Positions 7,582-64,000 of a stretch of 64,000 nucleotides of DNA are shown here, piece by piece (the stretch's first letter is position 1; every line of letters begins with the position of its first letter). Both the position numbers and the translations under genes were made by a program. Origin of the DNA: Rhodobacter aestuarii (GTDB lineage Bacteria > Pseudomonadota > Alphaproteobacteria > Rhodobacterales > Rhodobacteraceae); contig NZ_FTOG01000002.1 of NCBI RefSeq assembly GCF_900156655.1, positions 186,001 to 250,000 of the forward strand. The letters are read 5' to 3'. Under the pieces are notes generated by a model. The model searched no databases. It was not told the DNA's origin and saw only the letters and a list, made by a program, of their open reading frames with translations.

Positions 7582-8504
7582 TGCCCCTTGCTGCGCGCGG
7601 TGGGCTTTACGCGGCGACTATCTGCCCAATGATCGAGACTGGCGCGCTTGATCGCGCCAGCCTTGAGCGGCACTTTGAGACCGTTTTGGCCGACCCCGGT
7701 CAAGCGGGGCTCTTGCTCAACGGCCATGCGGGCGAAGGCATCCATATGACGCGCGACGAGCAGGCCGAGGTGGTCCGCATCGCCCGCACTGTGGCTGGCT
7801 CTCGCCGTATTCTGGCCGCCGTCAGTTCCGAAACCACCGCCACGGCCGCCGCCGATGCGCAAGCCGCGCTGAGGGCGGGGGCGGATGCGATCATGGTCTT
7901 TGCGCCCTTTTCTTGGGCGCTTGGCGCCGATCCGCGCGCGATTGTGGCCCATCATGCCGGGATCGCCGAAGCCACCGGGGCGGAGATTTATCTTTTCCAA
8001 GGCTCGGTTGGCTCCGGCAAGCTTGCCTATACGCCCGATGTTTTGCGCCAATTGCTTGAAATCGAAGCGGTTGTTGGCATCAAAGAGGGCAGCTGGGAAA
8101 CCAAATCCTACGAGGTGACCCGGCGCATCGCGCGCGAAATGCGCCCCGATGTGGCGGTGATGGCCTCGGGCGACGAGCATCTTTTCCCCTGTTTCATGAT
8201 CGGCAGCGATGGCTCGGCGGTAAGCCTCTCGGCGCTTGTGCCCAAACAGATTACCGCGCTGAATGCCCATGTCCGCGCCGGGCGGATCGACGCGGCCCGT
8301 GCCATTCACGAAACCCTCTTTGGCCTCGCGCGTTTGGTTTACGCGGCGCCGGGGCACCTTGCCGCCGCGCGTCTTAAGGCCTGCCTTGCGGAACTTGGCC
8401 GCATTGAGTCCCCAGCCTGTCGCGCGCCCACACCGCGTATTTTGCCCGCAGAACTCGACGCCCTGATGGCCGCGTTGCGCCCCTGCTTGGAGGCCCCAGA
8501 ATGA
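7581..8504 (+). CDS. DapA-superfamily lyase, atypical active site (second of a pair)
   Basis: 307 residues, same fold as the preceding gene but clearly diverged. Lys168 in VGIKEGS is the Schiff-base lysine. NGHAGE (47-52) again replaces GTTGE, and LFQGS (138-142) replaces YNxP, so Phe139 stands for the catalytic Tyr. Both paralogues share the same unusual His in the phosphate/carboxylate-binding loop, pointing to a shared kind of substrate rather than decay. Start overlaps the previous stop (TGATG) and the stop overlaps the next start (ATGA). Likely a retro-aldolase or decarboxylating lyase of the pathway; the reaction is not known. Confidence 0.86.
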   Translation: MPLAARGGLYAATICPMIETGALDRASLERHFETVLADPGQAGLLLNGHAGEGIHMTRDEQAEVVRIARTVAGSRRILAAVSSETTATAAADAQAALRAGADAIMVFAPFSWALGADPRAIVAHHAGIAEATGAEIYLFQGSVGSGKLAYTPDVLRQLLEIEAVVGIKEGSWETKSYEVTRRIAREMRPDVAVMASGDEHLFPCFMIGSDGSAVSLSALVPKQITALNAHVRAGRIDAARAIHETLFGLARLVYAAPGHLAAARLKACLAELGRIESPACRAPTPRILPAELDALMAALRPCLEAPE

Positions 8505-8782
8505 GCCAGACACATATCGTCTTCGTCGACATCGACCCCGAACACGAGGCCGCCTTCGACGCATGGTACGAAGACCAACATCTGCCCGATATCCTTGCCT
8601 GCCCGGGCTGGCTGGATGCGCGGCGCGAGAAATGCCTTGAAGGTGGTCCGCGCCATGTCGCGATCTACACGATCACCGGTCCAGAGGCCTATGAAACGCC
8701 CGAATTCAATGCTATCAAAGGCTTTGGGCCGTTCACTGAAAAGGTGCGTAATTTCCGGCGAATTCGTCTGACACGCAGCTGA
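8501..8782 (+). CDS. small dimeric alpha/beta-barrel protein (EthD/ABM-like)
   Basis: 93 residues, soluble. The sequence pattern strand (THIVFVDIDP), helix (EAAFDAWYEDQHLPDILA), strands (DARREKC, RHVAIYTITG), helix (YETPEFNAIKGF) is that of ferredoxin-like dimeric barrels such as EthD and antibiotic-biosynthesis monooxygenase-like proteins. The WYEDQHLPDIL motif is typical of that group. Coupled to the upstream lyase by ATGA overlap. It may isomerise, oxidise or stabilise a reactive intermediate; no catalytic role can be proven from sequence. Confidence 0.7.
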   Translation: MSQTHIVFVDIDPEHEAAFDAWYEDQHLPDILACPGWLDARREKCLEGGPRHVAIYTITGPEAYETPEFNAIKGFGPFTEKVRNFRRIRLTRS

Positions 8783-8816
8783 TACGGTCGGTGCAAATGG
8801 GGACGACAAAGGCGAC

Positions 8817-9746
8817 ATGCTGAATCTCAGGCAGCTCGAAATCCTTCGAGCCGTGGTGCAATATCGGACCACCGTGGGGGCAGCGGAAACGCTGGGCATG
8901 TCGCAACCGACGATTTCCAACACCATCCGTCATGTCGAGACCCTTCTTGGCTTCGCGCTTTTTGAACGGGTGAGCAATCGGCTCACCCCGACCGAAGAGG
9001 CGCTTATCCTGCTTGAGGAATCCGAGCCGCTTTTCTTGCTCCGCGACGCGGTGAACCAGCGCGCGGCAGACCTGCGGATGGGCAAAATCGGCCGTTTGCG
9101 CGTGGCCACAACCGCAGAACTCAGCGAAGCGGTGCTGCCAAGCCTGATTGCCGATTACGGGCGCGAATTTCCGCGCGTGCAAATTTCGGTCGAGACCCGC
9201 CCGCTCGACAGTGTGCTTCAGGTGGTTGAAAACGGCGTCGCCGACGTTGCCTTCATGATCTCCGCCTATGAACGGCAAGGATTGCAATTCGAAACCGTCG
9301 ATGAATTGCGCACCGTCTGTCTTTGCGATGCCCAAGACCCGCTGGCGAAGCTGGACGTGGTCACGCCGCGTGACCTTGTTGATCGCCCCTTGGTTGGGCC
9401 GCAGGTTGCCAACCGGGTCGGGCTGACACTGGCTGACAGTTTTCAAGCCGCCGGTTACGACTACCGCCCCAACATCGAAACCCGTTTCATGAACACCGCC
9501 GCGCGGATCGCAAGCGAGGGATGGGGGGTCGCGCTGGTCGATGAGCTATCGGCTTTCACGGCGATGCGCCCCGGCCTCGTCGTGCGCCCCTATGCACCAG
9601 AGTTGCGCTTTGACCTGCTGGCCGCGACGCCGAAGTCGCGCCCCCCGTCGCGCCAGACCCAGCGCTTCATCAATGCTTTTGGCAAGCGCGTGGTGGAGCG
9701 CATTGCCGAAGTCAGGCTGGCCAGCCAACGCTCTGGCACCGTCTGA
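8817..9746 (+). CDS. LysR-family transcriptional regulator
   Basis: 309 residues. N-terminal winged helix-turn-helix (1-60: LRQLEILRAVVQYRTTVGAAETLGMSQPTISNTI) and a LysR effector domain from about residue 90, typical length. Located between the lyase operon and the first TRAP operon, same strand, AAAGG ribosome site. Probably senses a pathway acid and controls one or both flanking operons; the inverted repeats at 9864-9885 and 9979-9996 just downstream are candidate sites, though LysR proteins usually bind near their own start as well. Confidence 0.93.
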   Translation: MLNLRQLEILRAVVQYRTTVGAAETLGMSQPTISNTIRHVETLLGFALFERVSNRLTPTEEALILLEESEPLFLLRDAVNQRAADLRMGKIGRLRVATTAELSEAVLPSLIADYGREFPRVQISVETRPLDSVLQVVENGVADVAFMISAYERQGLQFETVDELRTVCLCDAQDPLAKLDVVTPRDLVDRPLVGPQVANRVGLTLADSFQAAGYDYRPNIETRFMNTAARIASEGWGVALVDELSAFTAMRPGLVVRPYAPELRFDLLAATPKSRPPSRQTQRFINAFGKRVVERIAEVRLASQRSGTV

Positions 9747-9863
9747 GCAGCGCGTAAAGCGGCGCCTTTCCTAAAATTCCCCGAAGCGATTCTTACCAAC
9801 ACACCGTCGAAAGGCGGGTTTGGGGTCGATTTTCCCAAATGTGGGCGTTAACATTCTGACCTG

Positions 9864-9885
9864 ATTTTGGTCGCTGATCCAAAAT
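9864..9885. promoter_or_regulatory. inverted repeat ATTTTGG-N8-CCAAAAT, candidate operator
   Basis: Perfect 7-bp arms with an 8-nt spacer, 218-239 bp before the DctQ start. The sub-sequence CTGATCCAAA (9874-9883) recurs on the opposite strand at 17267-17276 in the divergent promoter of the second TRAP operon, suggesting one regulator for both. Confidence 0.5.
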
Positions 9886-9978
9886 ATGCCTGCTTCTTGT
9901 TCGCCATGCGAACGGTGCCCCCTCAAAGGCAAGCGGACACTCTGGGAATATTCGCGAAAACGGCGCATCGAATACTTC

Positions 9979-9996
9979 CTATAAAGAAATTTATAG
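9979..9996. promoter_or_regulatory. inverted repeat CTATAAA-N4-TTTATAG, candidate operator or promoter element
   Basis: Perfect 7-bp arms around GAAA, 107 bp before the DctQ start. The A/T-rich arms contain -10-like hexamers, so it could overlap the core promoter. No known binding consensus is matched with certainty. Confidence 0.4.
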
Positions 9997-10102
9997 CTCC
10001 TCGCCTTCCTACACGCGCCTTTGCCGATAACCTTTCCCAAAAGCACCGTTGCGGGCGCCGCTCAGGCAGATCGCACGAAAAAGGAAGAATGGAGAGACCG
10101 CG

Positions 10103-10681
10103 ATGAGTAGGCAGACCACCGATGAAACCGGAGCGAAGGGCTCTGGCATGCCTCGTTGGCTGATTGCCCCGGCGGCCTTTTTGAAAATCGCTCTGGTCGT
10201 ATTGCGCCGGGTGGTCGATGTCATCGCGCTTCTGCTCATCGCCTATATGGCCTGTGCGATCCTTGCGCAGATCATCGGGCGGTACTTCTTCAACTATTCC
10301 ATCGCTTGGAGCGAGGAAACGGCGACCTTCGCACAGGTCTGGCTCACGCTCCTTGGCGCGGGCATCGCCATGCGTTTCAACCAGCATGTCGCGGTCGATT
10401 TTTTGCTCCTCCGGGCATCTCGCCCGATCCAACGGCTTTGCAATGGCGCGGGCTTCCTGCTCGGGATCTGGTTCCTCGGCGTCGTGGTGACGGGCTCGCT
10501 GTCGCTGCTCGCCATCGGCTTCATCGTCAAATCCCCGGCGCTGCAAATCCCGATGGCGGTGCCTTACATGGCCTTGCCGGTGGGCTTTAGCTACTTCCTT
10601 CTGGAATTCGCCGTGGCGACCCTGCCCCGCGTAGTGCACCCCGCCCGAGTACGCGCAGAGATCGCGGAGGCCGAAGCATGA
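10103..10681 (+). CDS. TRAP transporter small permease (DctQ type)
   Basis: 192 residues with four membrane helices (about 25-50, 65-85, 105-130, 150-175). FNYSIAWSEETATFAQVWLTLLGAGIAMRFNQHVAVD is split over the conserved second to third helix region typical of DctQ. It docks on the large permease and makes the Na+-driven uptake unit for an organic acid. An in-frame TTG exists at 10049, but ATG 10103 has GGAGA 9 nt upstream. The stop overlaps the DctM start (ATGA). First gene of the dctQMP-hydantoinase operon. Confidence 0.9.
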   Translation: MSRQTTDETGAKGSGMPRWLIAPAAFLKIALVVLRRVVDVIALLLIAYMACAILAQIIGRYFFNYSIAWSEETATFAQVWLTLLGAGIAMRFNQHVAVDFLLLRASRPIQRLCNGAGFLLGIWFLGVVVTGSLSLLAIGFIVKSPALQIPMAVPYMALPVGFSYFLLEFAVATLPRVVHPARVRAEIAEAEA

Positions 10682-11955
10682 TCTGGGCGGCTGGCGGATT
10701 TCTCATTCTTCTTGTCTCTGGCACGCCGATCGTTCTGGCCCTTGGCATCGCGGCCCTCTTGGCGATTGAACTCACCACGAATGCCCCGATCTCTATCGTG
10801 GCACAGCGTATCTATGGCGGGATCAGTTCCTTCACCCTGATGGCGATCCCCTTCTTCGTGGCCGCGGGCCTCTTGATGGAAGCGGGAGGCATTGCGCGGC
10901 GCTTCGTCAACCTTGCCTCTGCGCTGGTCGGCTGGATCACCGGGAGCCTCTATCTCGTCTCTATTGTGACGGGCACCGGGCTGGCGGCGATTTCGGGCTC
11001 TGGATCTGCCGATACGGCCGCCATTAGCGCGGTGATGACACCCGAGATGCGCAAACGCCGCTATGACATTGACCTTGCCGCCTCTGTCATTGCCGCTTCT
11101 GGCGCGCTCGCCGCAATCATCCCGCCGTCGATCATCATGATCATCATCGCGATCACCGCAAACCAGTCGATCGGAGCCATGTTCCTCGGTGGGATCGGGC
11201 CGGGCCTCTTGGTCATGGTGGGCCTGATGCTCGGTTGCTGGCTCTTTGCGCGGCGTGGCGGCGACGCTTACCGCGAGCATGAAGCCTTCACCCTGCGCCG
11301 CCTCTGGGTCAGCTTTGTCGATGCTGCGCCGGGCCTTCTTGTTCCCGTTGTCATCGTTGGCGGTATCGTCGGCGGTATCTTCACGGCAACCGAGGCCGCT
11401 TGCGTGGCGCTTTTCACGACGCTGGTCATCACCATCTTCGTTTATAAAGAACTCCGCCTAAATGACCTTCCGCGTATTTTCCTGCGCGCCATCTCGCTTT
11501 CGGCGACGGTGCTGATCATCGTCTCGACCGCCTCGGTCTTTACATGGATCATCGCCACCCAAGGCTTCCCGGCGATGCTGCGTGACTGGCTCACCGGCGT
11601 CACAGACAGCGCGGTCGTCTTTCTGCTTTTGGTGAACGTTTTGCTGCTGGTCGTCGGCATGTTCATGGAAAGCATCTCGGCGGTGCTGATCTTGCTGCCG
11701 ATCCTGCTGCCCATCGCGCAAAGCTACGGGATCAACCCGGTCCAGTTCGGCATTATCACCGCGCTCAACCTGTCCATCGGCCTCGTGACGCCGCCCTACG
11801 GGATCTGCCTCTACGTCTCTGCCACGGTGGCCGGGCGGCGGATCGAGCAGGTCTCGCGCCGGGTATGGCTGCCCCTGCTGTGCATGTTGGTGGTGCTGAT
11901 GCTTGTCACCTTCGTACCGGCGATTTCGCTCTGGCTTCCTTCGGTGCTTCTCTAA
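10678..11955 (+). CDS. TRAP transporter large permease (DctM type)
   Basis: 425 residues, twelve or so membrane helices, full family length. Signature stretches visible: SGSGSADTAAISAVM near residue 105-120, IIPPSIIMIIIAI near 145, TATEAACVALFTTL near 240 and GLVTPPYGICLY near 365. Carries the transport pathway of the TRAP system; works with the DctQ upstream and the binding protein at 12012. Starts by ATGA overlap with dctQ. Confidence 0.95.
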   Translation: MIWAAGGFLILLVSGTPIVLALGIAALLAIELTTNAPISIVAQRIYGGISSFTLMAIPFFVAAGLLMEAGGIARRFVNLASALVGWITGSLYLVSIVTGTGLAAISGSGSADTAAISAVMTPEMRKRRYDIDLAASVIAASGALAAIIPPSIIMIIIAITANQSIGAMFLGGIGPGLLVMVGLMLGCWLFARRGGDAYREHEAFTLRRLWVSFVDAAPGLLVPVVIVGGIVGGIFTATEAACVALFTTLVITIFVYKELRLNDLPRIFLRAISLSATVLIIVSTASVFTWIIATQGFPAMLRDWLTGVTDSAVVFLLLVNVLLLVVGMFMESISAVLILLPILLPIAQSYGINPVQFGIITALNLSIGLVTPPYGICLYVSATVAGRRIEQVSRRVWLPLLCMLVVLMLVTFVPAISLWLPSVLL

Positions 11956-12011
11956 AGAGCCGCACCCTCCCCCTTTCTCCCCTCCCTCAACCACAAGAAA
12001 GAGAAACTCAC

Positions 12012-12983
12012 GTGTCCAACAGACTTCTTACCACCCTTGCGACCCTCGCAGCTTTTGCCACCGCCACCGGCCCGGCACTCGCCGCCGACTACACCTTCAA
12101 AGTTGCCCATACCAATGCGGCAAACGAGGTTCAGGACATGGGCCTGCAGAAGATGAAGGAGTTGCTCGAAGCCAAGACCGATGGCGCGGCCACGCTTGAA
12201 ATCTATGCCGGCGGCCAACTCGGGGACGAACAGCAAACGGTGGAAGGCGTGATGCTCGGCTCGCTCGACATGGGCATGACCTCGAACGCGATGCTGTCGA
12301 ACTATGTCGAAGATTACAAAGTCTTCGATCTGCCGTTTCTCTTCCCGTCGATCCCGGCCCTTGGCGAGAAAGTCGATGCCAATTGGGACATGATGGAAGC
12401 CTCTGCCAACAAGTCTGGCTTCCAACTGATCGGCATCTTTTCCTCGGGCATCCGCCACCTGATGACCTCGAAACCGATCAACGGCATGGAAGATCTGGCG
12501 GGCATGAAGATCCGCACCATGCAAAACCCGATCCATGTTGAGGCCTTCCGCGCCTATGGCGCCAACCCGACCCCGATGTCCTATTCGGAGCTTTACGGCG
12601 CGCTGCAAGCGGGCGTGGTCGACGGGGCCGAGGGTGCCTCGACCGGCTATGACGGGATGAAATTCTACGAAGTCGCCCCCGATTTCGCGCTGGTTGGCTG
12701 GCTCAACATGACCGCGCCGATCACGATGAAAAAAGACACGTTCGACGCCCTGCCCGCAGAGATCCAGACCGCGCTGATGGAAGCCGGTGCCGAAGCCGCC
12801 ACCTGGCAGCGCCAATATGTTGTCGATATGGAGCAGCCGCTTCTCGACAGCTTTGCGGCGCATGGGGTGACGATCACCACGCCCGACACCGCGCCCTTCA
12901 TCGAAGCCTCGCAGCCGCTCTATGAAAGCCAACTGACCACCGATGGTCAAAAGGCGCTCTTTGACGCGCTGACCGCGAAATAA
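12012..12983 (+). CDS. TRAP transporter periplasmic binding protein (DctP type)
   Basis: 323 residues starting with GTG 12012. Signal peptide of about 24 residues ending GPALA before ADYTF. The DctP fold is supported by GGQLGDEQQTVEGVMLGSLD-type region, GMKIRTMQNP (the Arg contacts the substrate carboxylate) and GVVDGAEGA. Captures a carboxylate in the periplasm and delivers it to DctQM encoded just upstream. The binding protein comes after the permeases here, unlike in the second TRAP operon. A stem-loop (13006-13036) separates it from the hydantoinase gene. Confidence 0.93.
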   Translation: MSNRLLTTLATLAAFATATGPALAADYTFKVAHTNAANEVQDMGLQKMKELLEAKTDGAATLEIYAGGQLGDEQQTVEGVMLGSLDMGMTSNAMLSNYVEDYKVFDLPFLFPSIPALGEKVDANWDMMEASANKSGFQLIGIFSSGIRHLMTSKPINGMEDLAGMKIRTMQNPIHVEAFRAYGANPTPMSYSELYGALQAGVVDGAEGASTGYDGMKFYEVAPDFALVGWLNMTAPITMKKDTFDALPAEIQTALMEAGAEAATWQRQYVVDMEQPLLDSFAAHGVTITTPDTAPFIEASQPLYESQLTTDGQKALFDALTAK

Positions 12984-57585: not shown

Positions 57586-57659
57586 GGCGGGTTGGCGGAG
57601 AGGTTACGCAGCGGATTGCAAATCCGTGAAGACCGGTTCGATTCCGGTACCCGCCTCCA
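57586..57659 (+). tRNA. tRNA-Cys (anticodon GCA)
   Basis: 74 nt including the encoded CCA. Acceptor stem GGCGGGT (57586-57592) pairs with ACCCGCC (57649-57655); discriminator base T as required for Cys; anticodon GCA at 57618-57620 in the loop TTGCAAA; T-loop GTTCGATTC. Its 3' end is the likely attachment site of the element that starts immediately downstream. Confidence 0.97.
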
Positions 57660-57727
57660 ATACTTTCAAATACTTGCGCCATCCTGCTCGTCCTTTCGAC
57701 AGCTTTTTGAAACACCCGTTGAAACAT

Positions 57728-58756
57728 TCACGTTCCGGGCTTGTTCTGTTCCATGCGATTCCGGGCTTCCTGCGCCCGCGTGGCAAGCTCCCGCTGCCGG
57801 ATCTGCCCTCCATACTTCTTGAGCATTTCCACGCTCGAATGTCCGGTAACTGATTTCACCAGCTCGTCGTCGTTTCCGGCTAAGTAAAGCTCGATTGTCG
57901 CGTTCTTCCGCAGACCGTGGGTTACATACTTCGCCTTGTCGGGGTGCTGCATCTTGGCCCGCACGGCCAGCATTTCGTCGTTCACCGCGCGATAATTGGC
58001 GGGACGCCCAGCTCTATCGGTGACGACGGCAAGGCCCCGCTTTTCGACCGTCGCCAAATACGCCTTGAGGCGGTTGGTGAGCGGTATCCACATCGGTTTG
58101 TCGGTCTTACCTTGGGTCAGGTCGTAGCACCCGCCCTCGAAGTGCCCCCAGCGCGCTTTGAGTATGTCCCCGATCCGTTGGCCAGTGCCGATGCACAGTT
58201 CATAGACCAGCCGTGCGCGCGGTGACGCCACCGCCTCAAACTCGGCCCGCACATCATCCGGCCACGGCTCCCAACCGTCGCTTTCCTGCTTGAACAGCGG
58301 GATTCCCTTGGCCGGATTGCCGTGCTCTTTCTTGAGAAAGCCGATCAGCCGCGCGTGGTTCATCAGGACAACCATCACCTGCACCAGGTAATTCGCCTGC
58401 CGCCAGTGCTCGGCATTGGCGCGGTGCAGCTCATAGATGTGATGCGGCTCGATTTTGGCCGGGTCTTTCGTGCCCCAGATCCTGCGGATGTGCTCGATGT
58501 ATTTGCGGTAATCCGCTTGGGTGCGCGGCTTCAGCTTCTTGAAAGCCTCGCTTTCAAAATAACTGAGAATTAGCGCCTCGAAGTTCCGCTTTGCCGAAAC
58601 CGGCTCACGCCCCCTCAAAAGGCGGTTGTAGTGCTCGTAAAACTCCGGCGTTCCGGGCTCTTCTTTCATCATCACGGATTGGCCGCGGGACCGACGAATG
58701 AATCTCACATAGCCTCGATCCGCGTAGACGTATTTGGGCAGGTCGGTCTTGGTCAT
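57728..58756 (-). CDS. phage-type tyrosine integrase
   Basis: 342 residues. N-terminal SAM-like core-binding region (LKPRTQADYRKYIEHIRRIWG), catalytic domain with Arg in GTGQRIGDIL, Lys in QGKTDK, HGLRKNATI box, and VTGHSSVEMLKKYGG with the last His and Tyr nucleophile. All six catalytic positions present. Its stop is 69 nt from tRNA-Cys, so it is transcribed towards the attachment site. Not related in detail to the P4-type integrase at 1624. ATGA overlap with the preceding small gene. Confidence 0.94.
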   Translation of the reverse strand: MTKTDLPKYVYADRGYVRFIRRSRGQSVMMKEEPGTPEFYEHYNRLLRGREPVSAKRNFEALILSYFESEAFKKLKPRTQADYRKYIEHIRRIWGTKDPAKIEPHHIYELHRANAEHWRQANYLVQVMVVLMNHARLIGFLKKEHGNPAKGIPLFKQESDGWEPWPDDVRAEFEAVASPRARLVYELCIGTGQRIGDILKARWGHFEGGCYDLTQGKTDKPMWIPLTNRLKAYLATVEKRGLAVVTDRAGRPANYRAVNDEMLAVRAKMQHPDKAKYVTHGLRKNATIELYLAGNDDELVKSVTGHSSVEMLKKYGGQIRQRELATRAQEARNRMEQNKPGT

Positions 58757-58941
58757 TTGCCCATCCTCAAGTCGCCACTCAGGAAGTCATCGCCGCCGTC
58801 CGGTTCGGCCATCGAGGCATCAATGACCGTGGTGCCATCTGGCTTGAGCTCAAATCGCGCACGCGCCCACCCCGCCTCACGCGCGGCTTGGATCAATGCC
58901 ACCGCATTCTGTCTGGCTTGAGTTTGGGGGTGACGCGCCAT
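58753..58941 (-). CDS. small unknown protein upstream of the integrase
   Basis: 62 residues, cytoplasmic, ending GGDDFLSGDLRMGK. RQNAVALIQAAREAGWARARFELKPDGTTVIDASM looks like a short alpha/beta module. Coupled to the integrase by ATGA. Comparable small genes lie upstream of integrases in Rhodobacteraceae elements, perhaps as excision or control factors; inference from position. Confidence 0.6.
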   Translation of the reverse strand: MARHPQTQARQNAVALIQAAREAGWARARFELKPDGTTVIDASMAEPDGGDDFLSGDLRMGK

Positions 58942-58947
58942 GTGGGC

Positions 58948-59613
58948 TTATTCCTCCCCCCGGAGAAACTTCGCCATCGCCTTGATTGTTCGCCACGAGA
59001 ACCATTGCATTCGACGCATGTCGCCACCGCGTCCTTGCTTTATGAAGCCTTCTGCCCAGAGTATTGCCTCGTCCGTAGTGTTAGGAACATTCAAGCTATA
59101 GTGGTGCTCCTCTCTGAACTCGCCCCCCACGATGAGGGTAATCGCGGCACTCGGCAGAGGGGTCAGCAGACGAAATTCAAGATGCAAGTGGCGCGGCATC
59201 ACATAATCGCCAACTTTTGATGGCTGCACTCCTTGGAGAGCCGCGTCAATTTCACGGTTCACTTCCGCATCAATGAACGCCCGCAGCGCCTGCCCGAAAG
59301 TGTGATCGGGTGGAAGCGACTGAACAGATGGAAGCGGAAAGTCGGCAAGAGACCATTTCCCATCGCCAGAGGAAACGGGGAGGTCAGAATATTCTCTTGC
59401 CATCTCGGCAACATCTTTGATGAGGGCGCCGGTCAAAACTGCGATCAGCAGGTTCGTTACATCATTCGAGCCCATTTTTGCGGCGCTCTTGCCGCGCCCT
59501 CCCTTGGTCCGCATGCCATGCGATACAAGTTCACGGTCGATCTGCGTCAAGGTCACCTCAGGAACCCCGAGGGTAGTCGCCGCGCACTTCACCATTTCGC
59601 CGGGGGTAGTCAT
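58948..59613 (-). CDS. unknown protein of the integrated element
   Basis: 221 residues. No family recognised. N-terminus contains TLGVPEVTLTQIDRELVSHGM and GKSAAKMGSNDVTNLLIAVLTG, reminiscent of DNA-binding or phage regulatory proteins; the C-terminal half has EFRLLTPLPSAAITLIVGGEFREEHHY, more like a strand-rich domain. GGAGA before ATG 59613 decides the start over a longer frame. Divergent from the 86-residue gene. Could be a regulator or a cargo gene; not decided. Confidence 0.6.
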   Translation of the reverse strand: MTTPGEMVKCAATTLGVPEVTLTQIDRELVSHGMRTKGGRGKSAAKMGSNDVTNLLIAVLTGALIKDVAEMAREYSDLPVSSGDGKWSLADFPLPSVQSLPPDHTFGQALRAFIDAEVNREIDAALQGVQPSKVGDYVMPRHLHLEFRLLTPLPSAAITLIVGGEFREEHHYSLNVPNTTDEAILWAEGFIKQGRGGDMRRMQWFSWRTIKAMAKFLRGEE

Positions 59614-59708: not shown

Positions 59709-59969
59709 ATGACGACCCAAAAAGTGCAGCCCTTCTTTGTCCGCTGCTTCATTGACAACCCCGGCGGGGCCTACGACCCGGCGCCGCTTCATCAGTTCGA
59801 CCACTATAGCTACTGCCCTCCTGCGGTTGGGGACCGACTGCAAGAAGGTAGAACCGGCGATAGGGTTTATGTCGTGACGCAGCGGCATTTCCATATCTAC
59901 GGCAACGGGCACGAAAACTGTGCCCTGCTAATTGAGTTGGCCGATCCCAGCCCGCTTGATCGCGTTTAA
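59709..59969 (+). CDS. unknown small protein (plus strand)
   Basis: 86 residues. PFFVRCFIDNPGGAYDPAPLHQFDHYSYCPP followed by GDRVYVVTQRHFHIYGNG; rich in His, Tyr, Pro and Asp, no signal peptide. GGAG 11 nt before ATG 59709. Unlike its neighbours it is on the plus strand, divergent from the 221-residue gene, so the pair could form a self-controlled unit. No family recognised. Confidence 0.6.
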   Translation: MTTQKVQPFFVRCFIDNPGGAYDPAPLHQFDHYSYCPPAVGDRLQEGRTGDRVYVVTQRHFHIYGNGHENCALLIELADPSPLDRV

Positions 59970-60012: not shown

Positions 60013-60270
60013 TCACGCCGCCGCCTCTGGCTGCACCGCCCACGCCCCGCGCTTAGTCTCGCGTTGCAGTCCCTCGGCACTGTTCCCGAGGGCGTGAGAA
60101 AGTTCCTCGGCAAGCCCCAGCACGGTTGCCGCTTCATGGCGCGCATCCTCCCCGCTTGTCTCGTTTTCGAGGGCAAGGCGCGCAGTGCGGATCAAAGCCG
60201 AGACGGTATAGGCCAGAGGCTCGGCAATATCGCGCGGGTCAGCGGTGCGCAGTTGGTCGAGCGTGATCAT
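60013..60270 (-). CDS. unknown small protein of the integrated element
   Basis: 85 residues, helical and acidic: MITLDQLRTADPRDIAEPLAYT, then ALIRTARLALEN and EAATVLGLAEELSHALG. Starts at ATG 60270, overlapping the stop of the next upstream gene (ATGA). Both small helical proteins are probably made as a pair. Function unknown. Confidence 0.6.
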   Translation of the reverse strand: MITLDQLRTADPRDIAEPLAYTVSALIRTARLALENETSGEDARHEAATVLGLAEELSHALGNSAEGLQRETKRGAWAVQPEAAA

Positions 60271-60503
60271 TGGGCACCGCCTTTCACCAGATCGGCAACA
60301 AGGGCGAGACGGGCGCATATGTCGTCAACCTTGTTAACAGCCTGAGCGCAAGCAAATGAAATGGCGTTGTTTTCGTCGGTCGGGTTATGTTCCGTTGCCA
60401 TTTCTACTAGGGTGACGATGCTGCGAACGTCGTGCAGGGCGTCCCTTGCATCGTTGATCCTGTGCAAAACTTCATCGGTCGCGCAGGCGCGTTGTTCGGT
60501 CAT
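60267..60503 (-). CDS. unknown small helical protein of the integrated element
   Basis: 78 residues, almost wholly helical: VLHRINDARDALHDVRSIVTLVEMATEH and CAQAVNKVDDICARLALVADLVKGG. Upstream partner of the 85-residue gene. Divergent from the plus-strand gene at 60604 across a 100-bp region with repeat elements. Similar paired short helical proteins are common in phage early regions; role unknown. Confidence 0.6.
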   Translation of the reverse strand: MTEQRACATDEVLHRINDARDALHDVRSIVTLVEMATEHNPTDENNAISFACAQAVNKVDDICARLALVADLVKGGAQ

Positions 60504-60603: not shown

Positions 60604-60855
60604 ATGGAGGACAAAGTGCGGGAAAACAAACTTAGGCGCAAAGCGGAGCGCATCGGCCTTCGAATCGAAAAATCTCGCGTGCGCGACGAAATGGCGCCGG
60701 ACTATGGCAAGTTCTGGATTCTGTCAGACTACAACCGCAGCAATCTTCTTGACGGCTATGACCAGAACGGAAAGCACTGCCTCACGATTGATGATCTCGA
60801 AGACCGCCTGAATGATGCGGAGTATGTTCGGAAGATCACGGCGAGGGCTCACTAA
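60604..60855 (+). CDS. unknown small basic protein of the integrated element
   Basis: 83 residues, basic at the N-terminus (KVRENKLRRKAERIGLRIEKSRVR), then DYGKFWILSDYNRSNLLDGYDQNG and HCLTIDDLEDRLNDAEY. AAGGAG before ATG 60604. Similar small proteins, with a basic helix and a short beta hairpin ending in LDDVEDYL-like sequence, occur in actinobacterial and alphaproteobacterial elements. DNA binding is likely from charge, not proven. Confidence 0.6.
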   Translation: MEDKVRENKLRRKAERIGLRIEKSRVRDEMAPDYGKFWILSDYNRSNLLDGYDQNGKHCLTIDDLEDRLNDAEYVRKITARAH

Positions 60856-61035: not shown

Positions 61036-62100
61036 TCACGCCAGCGAGTCGCCGCCGCCCCAGTTCACAGCCTTGAGCGCGCCGCCCAGTTCGTCGGGGG
61101 AAAGCCCCAATTCCTTGGCACGGCCCATTGCCTCGATCAGCTGCGAGAGCGCACGCGCGCGGCCCCCTGCATCGAAGGCTTGCAGCGGTCGGCCCACATC
61201 AATGAGAACATCGGACCCCAGCTTTTCGCGGCATTCCTCGGCCAAGAGTTCGGCCATCGGTTGCAGCACCCACCCGGCCAAATGCCGTTGCGCCTCGCGC
61301 ACCAGCGGCCCTTGAGCGGCTTGGCTGAACAGCGCGGGAAGCACGCCAAAGGCCGCACAGATCGCGCCCCGCGCCGCTTCGAGGGTTTCGGCCGGCATGG
61401 CGCGTTGCAGATCGGGCGTGAGTTGGTCGGGCGATCTGCCAGCGTTCGGGTTCATGCCCGCCGCCGTCGCCTGCGCCACCCCTTCAACAACCAACGAAGC
61501 CCCGCGCCGCCCCTTAAGCGCAGCCCGCATTGCCGCCATATCCGAAGCGCTGCCCTCGGGCATGTGCGCGATCTGCGAGCCCATCGGCGCGTTTTGCCAT
61601 GTATCGCGCAGCGCGGTTTCCACCTCTTGCAGCAAGCTCGCCGTGAGGCTGGACCGCCGCAGCGGCGCTTGCCCCGTCCAAGGTGCCACCGGATCAACAC
61701 CCAGCCGCAAGTGAATGACCTCACCCGCCAAGACGGTTTGCGAGGTCGAGCCGCCCGCTTCGGAGATGGAGACGCGATAGGCGCGCGGGATGCCGTCGCG
61801 GGTGCTTAAATCCCAATCGGCGCAGGGGATAAGCCGGTCCCGGATCAGCAACACCGATTCGCCCCGGATCGCCGCAGAGCGGGCAATGAGGGCCATCGTC
61901 TTGCGGTCCAGAAGGTCGGTGCCGGTCACATCGGCCAGAGCGAAAGCCGATTCCCAGAGCGTGACGCAGGTTTGAACCGTCGCCGTCAGTTCCGCGATGC
62001 CAGAGACGCCCGCGATATAGGATTCGCGCGCCGCCAAGATCGCCGCCGTGTAGCCGGTCGCCACATCGCGCTTTTCCAATTTGCGTTTGAAAGGCCACAT
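61036..62100 (-). CDS. phage portal protein (HK97 type)
   Basis: 354 residues, shorter than the about 400-450 usual for HK97-type portals. VQTCVTLWESAFALADV at the start of the fold, RDRLIPCADWDLS, VIHLRLGVDPVAPWTGQAPLRR and FGVLPALFSQAAQGPLVREAQR match the family. Forms the ring at the head vertex through which DNA passes. Starts ATG 62100, one base after the stop of the protease. It is the last gene of the visible head operon, where usually it would be first. Confidence 0.9.
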   Translation of the reverse strand: MWPFKRKLEKRDVATGYTAAILAARESYIAGVSGIAELTATVQTCVTLWESAFALADVTGTDLLDRKTMALIARSAAIRGESVLLIRDRLIPCADWDLSTRDGIPRAYRVSISEAGGSTSQTVLAGEVIHLRLGVDPVAPWTGQAPLRRSSLTASLLQEVETALRDTWQNAPMGSQIAHMPEGSASDMAAMRAALKGRRGASLVVEGVAQATAAGMNPNAGRSPDQLTPDLQRAMPAETLEAARGAICAAFGVLPALFSQAAQGPLVREAQRHLAGWVLQPMAELLAEECREKLGSDVLIDVGRPLQAFDAGGRARALSQLIEAMGRAKELGLSPDELGGALKAVNWGGGDSLA

Positions 62101-62101
62101 G

Positions 62102-62656
62102 TCAGAGCCTCCACCGATTGAGGGGGTTCACCGCGCCCCGGTAGGGCTGCCGATCTTGATGGGTTTCCCATGCCCGCGCCTCGATCTGCGCAGAGGGATA
62201 GGCCGGGACCGTGACCGCAGAGACTTCAAACAGCGCCGCTTGTGTCACCGTGCGCACCAGATCAGCGCCGCGCCGTTCCACCTTGTCGCCGCCGCTCGGC
62301 ACCCGGAAGCCGGGGGAAAGCCCCCGGATCAGCCCAGCGCGATGGGCGGCAAGGAAGTCCTTCGCCCAGGTGGTCGAGGCGTCAACCGTCGCTTCGATCT
62401 CTACGGCAAGGTCAGTGCTGCGAAGCCGCAGCGTGCCCGCCGCCGTGCTGGCAAGAGGCTTGGTGTAATCGTGCTGGGCAAGCAGGTGGATTTCCTCGCC
62501 CGCTTCGATGCGTCCCCGGAAGGCGTGAGGGGCGAAGACCTCGCGCCGCCCCGGTGCCAGTTCGGTTTCGGCTTGATAGGGGAACCGCGCCGAAAGGTGA
62601 GTTGCCCCACCTTCCGCCCGAATTTCCAGCGTCCCGAGATTTCCGCCCCAGAGCAT
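62102..62656 (-). CDS. HK97-type prohead protease
   Basis: 184 residues. The serine protease of head maturation. LLAQHDYTKPLAS carries the catalytic His and GLIRGLSPGFRV the catalytic Ser. FEVSAVTVPAYPSAQI is the typical end block. ATG 62656 overlaps the capsid stop (TGATG); a GTG is at 62659. Not fused to the capsid. Confidence 0.9.
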   Translation of the reverse strand: MLWGGNLGTLEIRAEGGATHLSARFPYQAETELAPGRREVFAPHAFRGRIEAGEEIHLLAQHDYTKPLASTAAGTLRLRSTDLAVEIEATVDASTTWAKDFLAAHRAGLIRGLSPGFRVPSGGDKVERRGADLVRTVTQAALFEVSAVTVPAYPSAQIEARAWETHQDRQPYRGAVNPLNRWRL

Positions 62657-63918
62657 CACGCCACCTGCACGCCGGTCAGGAGTTCGAGTTGCGCACCGCG
62701 CGCGACGGTCGTGTCAACCGTGGTCAGCGCGGTCAGGCGCAGGCCACCCGAGGCCGCATCGCTGAACGGATCGCGGATCAGGTCCACCGCGCCCCACATG
62801 CCCACGAATACCGGGGCAACACCGCCCGCCGAGGTGGTCAGAAGCGAAGTGCAGGCCAAGGGGTCGCCGGTCGGAGCCGCCAGCGCGGTCGAAGACATGG
62901 CAATGCCGCCCATCTTTTCCGCCATGCGGTCAAACTCGAATTTCGGCGCAGAGGTCGCGGTCAATTGGTCTTCCATGAAGTCCCAGACCTCGGGCCGGAT
63001 CAGCGCGCGCACATCGGCGGGGGTCGAGGCGGCATTGCGCGCCATGAAGCGCACCACGGCGCTGCGATAGGTCGCCCAAGACGCCGCAGCATCAACCGCG
63101 GTCGAGGTGATGCCATAGGTCGCCGCCCCGGTGATCACGCCCAGCGGTTGCCCATCCGCGCCGGTGCCGAGGAAGATCGCGCGATCAAGTTCCGCGCCCA
63201 TCGCCCCGTTCATGTCGCGCCGGATCGCCGCTTCCAGAGCCTCGCCCGATTGCAAGAGCGCCTTGCGGGTGACCCGCATTTGAACGCCCATCGTCTGATT
63301 GGGGGCTAGCGCTTTGTCGATGGTGCCGTAGGCGGTCGGGTCGGGAATGTTGCCAGTTTCGCCGTTCGCCCAGCCCGCCGTGACGGCAGAGGTCGAAACC
63401 GGCCATTCGACAGCACCGGAACCGATAGCGATCATCTGGGCACCCATGCGCGCGGCCACGCTCGCCGGGAAAAGCCGGTCGATGATCGGGCGCGTTTGCA
63501 TCGGGTCGGGCGTGCCGGTCGAGACGGTTTCACCGGCCCGCGCTTCGAGCGCCAAGAGCGGCACGGGAATGCCGCGATAACCGCCCGCGTTGCGCAGCTC
63601 GGCCACGACTTCGGCGGTTTTCCCTTCAAGCGCGCGGCCTTCATTCAAGGCCCCGATCACTTGGCGCATTTGAAAGCCCGCGATCAGGTCGGACCATTCG
63701 CGGCCCGCGCGGGTTTCCAGATCGGCCCCGGCCTCGCGGCGCTCGGTATCCTCGGCAATGAGGCTGGCACGCAAGCGGGTTTCGTTGGTGCGATATTCCG
63801 CATCGAGGCTTTCCATCGAGCGGGTTTCGTCTTCGGTCGGGGTCGCCTTGCCGACAAGGCCCGCAAGGGCTTGGCGGATCTCGGATTGCCGACGCTGAAT
63901 TTTCACGCTTTCAAGCAT
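62656..63918 (-). CDS. HK97-type major capsid protein
   Basis: 420 residues. N-terminal delta domain coiled coil (1-100, RRQSEIRQALAGLV, EYRTNETRLRASLIAED) to be cut off by the protease, then the HK97 fold with RPIIDRLFPASVAARMGAQ, NQTMGVQMRVTRKALLQSG and GAELDRAIFLGTGADGQPLGVI. ATG 63918 after GAAGGA is chosen over an in-frame TTG at 63966. Followed directly by the protease. Confidence 0.93.
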   Translation of the reverse strand: MLESVKIQRRQSEIRQALAGLVGKATPTEDETRSMESLDAEYRTNETRLRASLIAEDTERREAGADLETRAGREWSDLIAGFQMRQVIGALNEGRALEGKTAEVVAELRNAGGYRGIPVPLLALEARAGETVSTGTPDPMQTRPIIDRLFPASVAARMGAQMIAIGSGAVEWPVSTSAVTAGWANGETGNIPDPTAYGTIDKALAPNQTMGVQMRVTRKALLQSGEALEAAIRRDMNGAMGAELDRAIFLGTGADGQPLGVITGAATYGITSTAVDAAASWATYRSAVVRFMARNAASTPADVRALIRPEVWDFMEDQLTATSAPKFEFDRMAEKMGGIAMSSTALAAPTGDPLACTSLLTTSAGGVAPVFVGMWGAVDLIRDPFSDAASGGLRLTALTTVDTTVARGAQLELLTGVQVA

Positions 63919-64000
63919 GGTCGTTTCCTTCACTGAGGGGGAGGGTTTCCGCTGCCAGATCGGCAACGGCAGTCGCCCAAGCCTTGCGCTCGGGGGATTT
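63911..64000 (-). CDS. unknown gene upstream of capsid (only the C-terminus visible)
   Basis: The last 29 codons (KSPERKAWATAVADLAAETL) end with TGA at 63911-63913, overlapping the capsid ATG by 8 nt. Good codon use and the tight overlap show that this is a real gene of the head operon. Too short to name; a head, terminase or nuclease gene is expected there. Confidence 0.55.
   Translation of the reverse strand, partial: KSPERKAWATAVADLAAETLPLSEGNDHA

What the first reader, a model, noticed from the sequence alone, without database searches (positions are those of the whole stretch)
61036..63918. Head genes transcribed in reversed order (capsid, protease, portal)
HK97-type phages and gene transfer agents run portal, protease, capsid. 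Here, with minus-strand transcription, the order is inverted while the genes stay tightly coupled, and the portal is short (354 aa). Next to the integrase are only small unknown genes, with no repressor, lysis or tail gene seen. This hints at a capsid-forming satellite rather than a normal prophage.
Basis: partly seen in the sequence, partly recalled or inferred. Interest (0 to 1): 0.6.

Follow-up and report, generated by a model that had tools for sequence, protein, structure and literature searches.

The report
Head-making phage satellite of Alphaproteobacteria
The backwards head genes belong to a complete 10.7-kb parasite-of-phages that builds its own DNA container but has no recognisable tail genes, and it is one of hundreds of such elements, nearly all about 10 kb long, spread through Alphaproteobacteria.

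Summary
Extending right shows a 10,662-bp element in tRNA-Cys with perfect 48-bp att repeats. Transcribed order: AAA helicase/primase, adaptor, TerL, HNH, capsid, protease, portal, small genes, tyrosine integrase. No tail or lysis gene was recognised.

It is not a one-off or a wreck. About 10% of sampled genomes of the host's family carry a relative. The block TerL-capsid-protease-portal is kept in 138 of 160 loci; the rest are truncated, gapped or circularly permuted. Head genes are under purifying selection. Thirty-seven att-delimited relatives measure 10.2 +/- 0.4 kb in 11 tRNA types.

Capsid-protease-portal is also the order of known gammaproteobacterial cf-PICIs, so the "reversal" is a satellite signature. 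But this lineage places TerL, HNH and adaptor upstream of capsid, is 10 rather than ~16 kb, and its capsid and TerL are far from the gamma cf-PICI ones. It works like a cf-PICI; common descent with the gamma lineage is not supported.

New observations: two mutually exclusive neck modules; circular forms in which no integrase was found; one adaptor type most like gene-transfer-agent gp6. Helper and particles are untested. Whether published catalogues already list it could not be checked.

The parts
57586..57659 (+). tRNA-Cys, the integration target
   Evidence: ARAGORN
57613..57660 (+). attL core, 48 bp, identical to attR at L002:12275-12322 (window coordinate 68275-68322, outside the window)
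   Evidence: exact repeat
57728..58756 (-). tyrosine integrase
   Evidence: PF00589 1.8e-15, phrog_1 2.5e-31
58753..58941 (-). 62-aa protein that travels with this integrase type; candidate excisionase
   Evidence: 59-86% identical copies only beside 77-84% identical integrases in L121, L130, L138; function inferred
58948..59613 (-). 221-aa protein with a helical, possibly DNA-binding N-terminus; candidate regulator
   Evidence: conserved N-terminus in 5 elements; AlphaFold N-terminus pLDDT about 70-87, rest poor; function inferred
59709..59969 (+). 86-aa ORF, unknown, possible antisense gene
   Evidence: ORF only
60013..60270 (-). 85-aa ORF, unknown, overlaps the next gene by 4 bp
   Evidence: ORF only
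60267..60503 (-). 78-aa ORF, unknown
   Evidence: ORF only
60604..60855 (+). 83-aa ORF, unknown
   Evidence: ORF only
61036..62100 (-). portal protein, short form (354 aa)
   Evidence: PF04860 2.4e-9; ~350-360 aa in relatives
62102..62659 (-). prohead protease (S78)
   Evidence: PF04586 1e-25
62656..63918 (-). major capsid protein, HK97 fold family
   Evidence: PF05065 3e-15, phrog_617 1.3e-21
63911..64000 (-). HNH endonuclease, start of the gene lies outside at 64261 (L002:7911-8261)
   Evidence: PF01844 2e-11. Further parts outside the window, L002 coordinates: TerL 8252-9904, head-tail adaptor 9901-10212, AAA_25 helicase/primase-like 10400-11674, small ORF 11856-12128, attR 12275-12322

Best explanation
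This is an integrated, intact phage satellite that makes its own head. Integrase and a small partner protein excise it from tRNA-Cys; the helicase/primase-like protein replicates it; HNH plus TerL package a unit of about 10.2 kb into a small HK97-type shell built by its own capsid, protease and portal, closed by its own adaptor. A helper supplies tail and lysis. Shown: element borders, gene content, conservation, size constraint, purifying selection, circular relatives. Inferred: induction, packaging, dependence on a helper's tail, the small (about T=3 to T=4) shell.
For: Perfect 48-bp att repeats, 10,662 bp. Adaptor, TerL, HNH, capsid, protease, portal, helicase/primase, integrase and no recognised tail or lysis gene; outside the assigned genes the longest ORF is 239 aa, too short for a tape measure. 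40 of 395 family genomes, each of another genus, carry a close capsid; 253 loci in Rhodobacterales, Sphingomonadales and Hyphomicrobiales. Order kept in 138 of 160 loci. dN/dS 0.10-0.26 for capsid, TerL and protease in most comparisons. Length 10,195 +/- 370 bp over 37 att-delimited relatives in 11 tRNA types, although integrase and replication modules differ. 95 of 99 complete relatives carry a recognised adaptor. Circular contigs of 10,340 and 9,639 bp with exact terminal repeats. Capsid relatives in isolated phages are all under 60% identical overall and those listed 23-32%. Known cf-PICIs share capsid-protease-portal.
Against: No TerS and no head-closure gene was recognised in this element, although close relatives such as L115 and L151 have a closure. 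No induction, particle or helper has been observed. A tail made of unrecognised small proteins cannot be formally excluded.
Confidence: 0.88

Rival explanations
1. A decaying HK97-type prophage that has lost its tail and lysis genes and whose head genes were shuffled by chance.
For: Small size, missing tail, unusual gene order in one genome.
Against: Same content, order and length in dozens of genera; purifying selection; perfect att repeats; intact frames in most relatives.
Confidence: 0.03
2. An autonomous element: a minimal phage or plasmid-like element that needs no helper, using an unrecognised short tail or leaving the cell in tailless heads.
For: Two relatives are circular and no integrase was found in them, L151 (10,340 bp, 941-fold coverage in the record title) and L096 (9,639 bp); several small genes have no assignment.
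Against: An adaptor, and often a closure, would be kept for tail attachment; no lysis gene recognised; known elements of this layout borrow tails (PMC10690885 introduction, PMC13230959).
Confidence: 0.05
3. The element is a satellite, but its tail donor is the host's own gene transfer agent rather than a phage.
For: The AD10-type adaptor family scores 71 bits against GTA gp6 and at most 17-20 bits against cf-PICI and Roseomonas adaptors; one member found no phage record at all; in 100 family genomes most non-satellite hits of this adaptor sit beside the GTA capsid. Satellite carriers have GTA in 37 of 39 genomes against 280 of 356 others, Fisher one-sided p 0.008.
Against: The closure proteins, which touch the tail, are not GTA-like (6.6 bits; closest to cf-PICI and HK97); half the relatives use another adaptor, AD9, with no sequence match to GTA (its fold is a general adaptor fold); the window element has only a short 102-aa adaptor, whose GTA-like part is the C-terminal third; the association test ignores phylogeny and was made after seeing the adaptor result; the two GTA-negative carriers exist. 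The genome also holds three lambda-type portal loci, one with a lambda-type tape measure gene nearby.
Confidence: 0.1

Closest known systems
Gammaproteobacterial capsid-forming PICIs (cf-PICI; capsid structure 9gyi, elements in E. coli, K. pneumoniae NZ_CP069874, Arsenophonus NZ_CP123539)
   Same: Own capsid, protease, portal, adaptor, HNH and TerL, no tail; transcribed order capsid-protease-portal; integrase and replication gene in the K. pneumoniae element; protease and HNH are among the closest relatives found (54-65 and 28-33 bits)
   Different: About 10 kb against about 16 kb; adaptor, TerL and HNH upstream of the capsid instead of downstream; no TerS recognised; capsid 5.7 bits or no match and TerL 43-52 bits against 180 bits to HK97 TerL; capsid in phrog_617 first rather than phrog_10. 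Identity of 9gyi as the cf-PICI capsid is inferred from its 15-16 kb islands
cf-PISP satellite-plasmids of Vibrio (PMC13230959)
   Same: Capsid-forming, tailless, circular forms; there a recombinase lies between portal and adaptor, and in the circular form of this element the integrase end would lie there too
   Different: Vibrio only, 15.8 kb, capsid clusters with gammaproteobacterial cf-PICIs (that paper); here integrated forms dominate
Rhodobacter capsulatus type gene transfer agent (GTA)
   Same: One adaptor family is GTA gp6-like; present in the same genome
   Different: Standard gene order, own tail, no integrase; capsid, portal and TerL of the satellite do not match it (7.6-11.5 bits)
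HK97-like phages
   Same: TerL family (29% identity, 180 bits)
   Different: Phages run TerS-TerL-portal-protease-capsid-adaptor-closure-tail and are about 40 kb

Membership tests
cf-PICI | encodes its own capsid, protease and portal | tested here: met
cf-PICI | encodes head-tail connectors | tested here: met
   adaptor L002:9901-10212 (phrog_40, 2.3e-14; PF05135); closure not found in this element but present in about half of complete relatives
cf-PICI | encodes TerL and HNH for packaging | tested here: met
cf-PICI | encodes a small terminase (TerS) | tested here: inconclusive
   none recognised in window element or relatives scanned; unassigned small genes remain
cf-PICI | no tail and no lysis genes | tested here: met
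   by profile libraries and size budget
cf-PICI | integrase and att repeats at a discrete site | tested here: met
cf-PICI | AlpA-type regulator | tested here: inconclusive
   not recognised in the window element; AlpA/excisionase-like protein in L114, L136, L144
cf-PICI | primase/replication gene | tested here: met
   AAA_25 2.6e-40; phrog_906 DNA polymerase/primase 2.5e-30
cf-PICI | full gene order capsid-protease-portal-closure-adaptor-HNH-TerS-TerL | tested here: not met
   capsid-protease-portal met; adaptor, TerL and HNH lie upstream
cf-PICI | capsid of the gammaproteobacterial cf-PICI clade | tested here: not met
   5.7 bits or no match with the family profile
cf-PICI | capsid in one of the other published cf-PICI capsid radiations | not testable with these tools
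   three radiations are reported (PMC11389934); the primary papers were not held
cf-PICI | induced by a helper and carried in own heads on the helper's tails | not testable with these tools
   needs an experiment
HK97-type prophage | tail and lysis modules, portal-protease-capsid order | tested here: not met
Gene transfer agent | portal-protease-capsid order, own tail, no integrase, GTA capsid | tested here: not met

The most novel reading that the evidence does not exclude
Part of this satellite lineage parasitises the host's domesticated gene transfer agent: its heads dock on GTA tails through a GTA gp6-like adaptor, with the two exchangeable neck modules fitting two kinds of tail donor (GTA-like and phage).
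Probability: 0.08. Interest if true: 0.92.

Novelty: new variant of a known kind. Interest (0 to 1): 0.6.

Why it matters
It points to a common capsid-forming satellite lineage in Alphaproteobacteria (about one in ten sampled genomes of the host's family), whose capsid and terminase are far from those of the gammaproteobacterial cf-PICIs. If the descent is independent, head-making satellites arose more than once with the same capsid-protease-portal order. The narrow size (10.2 +/- 0.4 kb despite swapped modules) gives a natural test of how shell volume fixes genome length. The two alternative neck modules make satellite-tail matching testable, including whether a gene transfer agent can be a tail donor. 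Many IMG/VR contigs of 8-14 kb counted as viruses are these elements.

Tried and rejected
Decayed prophage: rejected by recurrence, selection and intact att sites. GTA or GTA relative: rejected for capsid, portal and TerL. Empty-site check in the one same-genus genome (G046): failed as a test, because its tRNA-Cys holds another island of about 15.5 kb bounded by the same 49-bp sequence. Cultured-phage relatives of the capsid: only distant ones. The primary cf-PICI papers (Cell Host Microbe 2023; NAR 2023) are not held. AlphaFold of the 221-aa protein was too poor to search. Phylum-wide search: strong hits only in Alphaproteobacteria; hits outside were weak and lay in longer open frames. A coverage comparison for L151 against its chromosome could not be made.

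Full report
Check of the observation. They are tightly packed (4-bp overlap, 1-bp gap). The same genome has a gene transfer agent cluster on contig C19 in the usual order TerL, portal, protease, capsid, so the inversion is not a feature of the host.

The whole element. The window is contig C15:186001-250000 of the genome. I fetched the sequence to the right as L002 (window coordinate = L002 + 56000). The 3' part of tRNA-Cys (57613-57660) recurs exactly, 48 of 48 bases, at L002:12275-12322. Between the copies lie 10,662 bp. In transcription order from attR: a small ORF, an AAA_25 helicase/primase-like protein, a gp6-type head-tail adaptor, TerL, HNH, capsid, protease, portal, a few small unknown genes on both strands, a 221-aa protein, a 62-aa protein and a tyrosine integrase at attL. 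No tail, lysis or recognisable repressor gene was found. Right of attR come a beta-helix protein, a pyridoxal-kinase-like gene and LepA.

It recurs. A capsid search over 395 genomes of the host's family found close relatives (50% identity or more over most of the protein, or a strong partial match at a contig end) in about 40, each from a different genus. In the named genome collection 253 loci encode relatives; the best 80 include Rhodobacter capsulatus DSM 1710, Ruegeria, Roseovarius, Sphingobium, Erythrobacter, Hoeflea, Jiella and Ponticaulis. IMG/VR holds more than 100. The listed capsid matches in GenBank phages are 23-32% identical.

Order and length are conserved. Of 160 loci, 138 keep TerL-capsid-protease-portal; 20 are incomplete at one end or lack a detectable gene; 2 show TerL after the portal, of which L096 is a circular contig cut elsewhere. 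A first set of 22 att-delimited elements gave 9.3-12.1 kb. Integrase and replication genes differ widely between them, even between elements whose head genes are 95-98% identical. A fixed length under module exchange is what a fixed shell volume would give; that step is inference.

It is under selection. Against close relatives, dN/dS for capsid, protease and TerL is 0.10-0.26 in all but one comparison (TerL of L040, 0.44, a diverged version) and for the portal 0.15-0.39. Most head genes in relatives are free of stops.

Circular forms. L151, a 10,436-bp contig of Gemmobacter serpentinus, has a 96-bp exact terminal repeat (circle of 10,340 bp; the record title gives 941-fold coverage). L096, from a metagenome, has a 127-bp repeat (circle of 9,639 bp). 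Neither matched any integrase of the set; L151 has a Cro/CI-type protein and unassigned putative replication genes. They look like episomal members, as described for Vibrio cf-PISPs (PMC13230959). The chromosome's coverage could not be compared.

Neck modules. Among 99 loci with a complete core, 47 carry adaptor type AD10 (27 of them with closure HC39) and 47 type AD9 (23 with closure HC12); one has AD9 with HC39, and four distant ones have none of these. AD10 lies upstream of TerL; AD9 lies between protease and portal. The AD9 protein had no family; its AlphaFold model (pLDDT 85) matches head-tail adaptors, first the one of the R. capsulatus GTA particle (6tba, E 2e-3, TM about 0.5), and gp6-type adaptors of phages (E 1.5e-5 and weaker). 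The two modules behave as alternatives. That they fit different tails is inference.

Comparison with known satellites. GTA capsid led to PDB entry 9gyi, whose capsid sits in 15-16 kb islands of E. coli and relatives; I take it as the gammaproteobacterial cf-PICI capsid. The annotated K. pneumoniae and Arsenophonus elements run capsid, protease, portal, (closure), adaptor, HNH, TerS, TerL. The alphaproteobacterial lineage shares that triplet but carries adaptor, TerL and HNH upstream. Family profiles give: TerL, 180 bits to HK97 and 43-52 to gamma cf-PICIs; capsid, 64 bits to phage ep3 and at most 6 to gamma cf-PICIs; protease, 54-65 bits to gamma cf-PICIs and 23 to HK97; HNH, 28-33 bits to gamma cf-PICIs; AD10 adaptor, 71 bits to GTA gp6 and at most 17 to gamma cf-PICIs; HC39 closure, 21-25 bits to cf-PICIs and HK97. 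The module is a mosaic and is not simply the gamma cf-PICI head. Published cf-PICI capsids form three radiations (PMC11389934); whether this is one of them I could not test. Searches of the paper library for cf-PICI or phage satellites together with Alphaproteobacteria or Rhodobacterales returned nothing relevant, but that library is partial.

Helper. The genome's only other PF04860 portal is the GTA's; three lambda-family portals mark other prophages, one with a lambda-type tape measure nearby. Any may or may not be a tail donor. In 100 family genomes nearly all non-satellite hits of the AD10 profile lie next to the GTA capsid. Satellite carriers have GTA more often (37 of 39 against 280 of 356; p 0.008; among near-complete genomes 35 of 36 against 252 of 312, p 0.006). 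The carrier status was read by eye from the tables, relatedness was not controlled, and the test was prompted by the adaptor match, so it is a lead only. The GTA-unlike closures speak against it.

Verdict. Ordinary prophage, decay and GTA are excluded on tested features. A capsid-forming satellite is by far the best reading (0.88). It works like a cf-PICI; membership by descent is not supported for the gamma lineage and untested for the rest. Therefore: a new variant of a known kind, with the reservation that published catalogues may already contain it.

Noticed in passing
L002:12862-14832 (window 68862-70832), + strand: A 656-aa beta-helix protein (weak GH28 match, tailspike-like) lies just right of attR, outside the element.
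   Followed up: no
G000:C19, L238:10223-19978: Complete-looking RcGTA-type cluster in the same genome in standard order; its gp6 adaptor is the closest known relative of the satellites' AD10 adaptor.
   Followed up: partly
99 loci with complete core: Two nearly mutually exclusive adaptor/closure modules placed at different positions in the head operon.
   Followed up: partly
L151 and L096: Circular relatives of 10,340 and 9,639 bp in which no integrase was found, possible episomal satellites; L151 title gives 941-fold coverage.
   Followed up: partly
L317 (G046:C60:52001-72000): In a same-genus genome the tRNA-Cys site holds another island of about 15.5 kb bounded by the same 49-bp repeat; it begins with an ORF that weakly resembles the integrase and includes other unrelated large ORFs.
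   Followed up: no
L253 (CP099479, Roseomonas mucosa plasmid pTT14-8): 16.9-kb plasmid with HNH, portal, protease, capsid, HNH and TerL and no annotated tail gene, in standard portal-protease-capsid order, with an IS21 insertion: another candidate satellite-plasmid.
   Followed up: no
L145, L146, L147: A distant clade (about 30% identity in the head proteins) with the same order and, in the two delimited members, the same 10.4-kb length.
   Followed up: partly
G000:C12, C7 and C30 (L318, L319, L320): Three lambda-family portal loci; L318 also has a lambda-type tape measure gene. Possible resident tail donors.
   Followed up: partly
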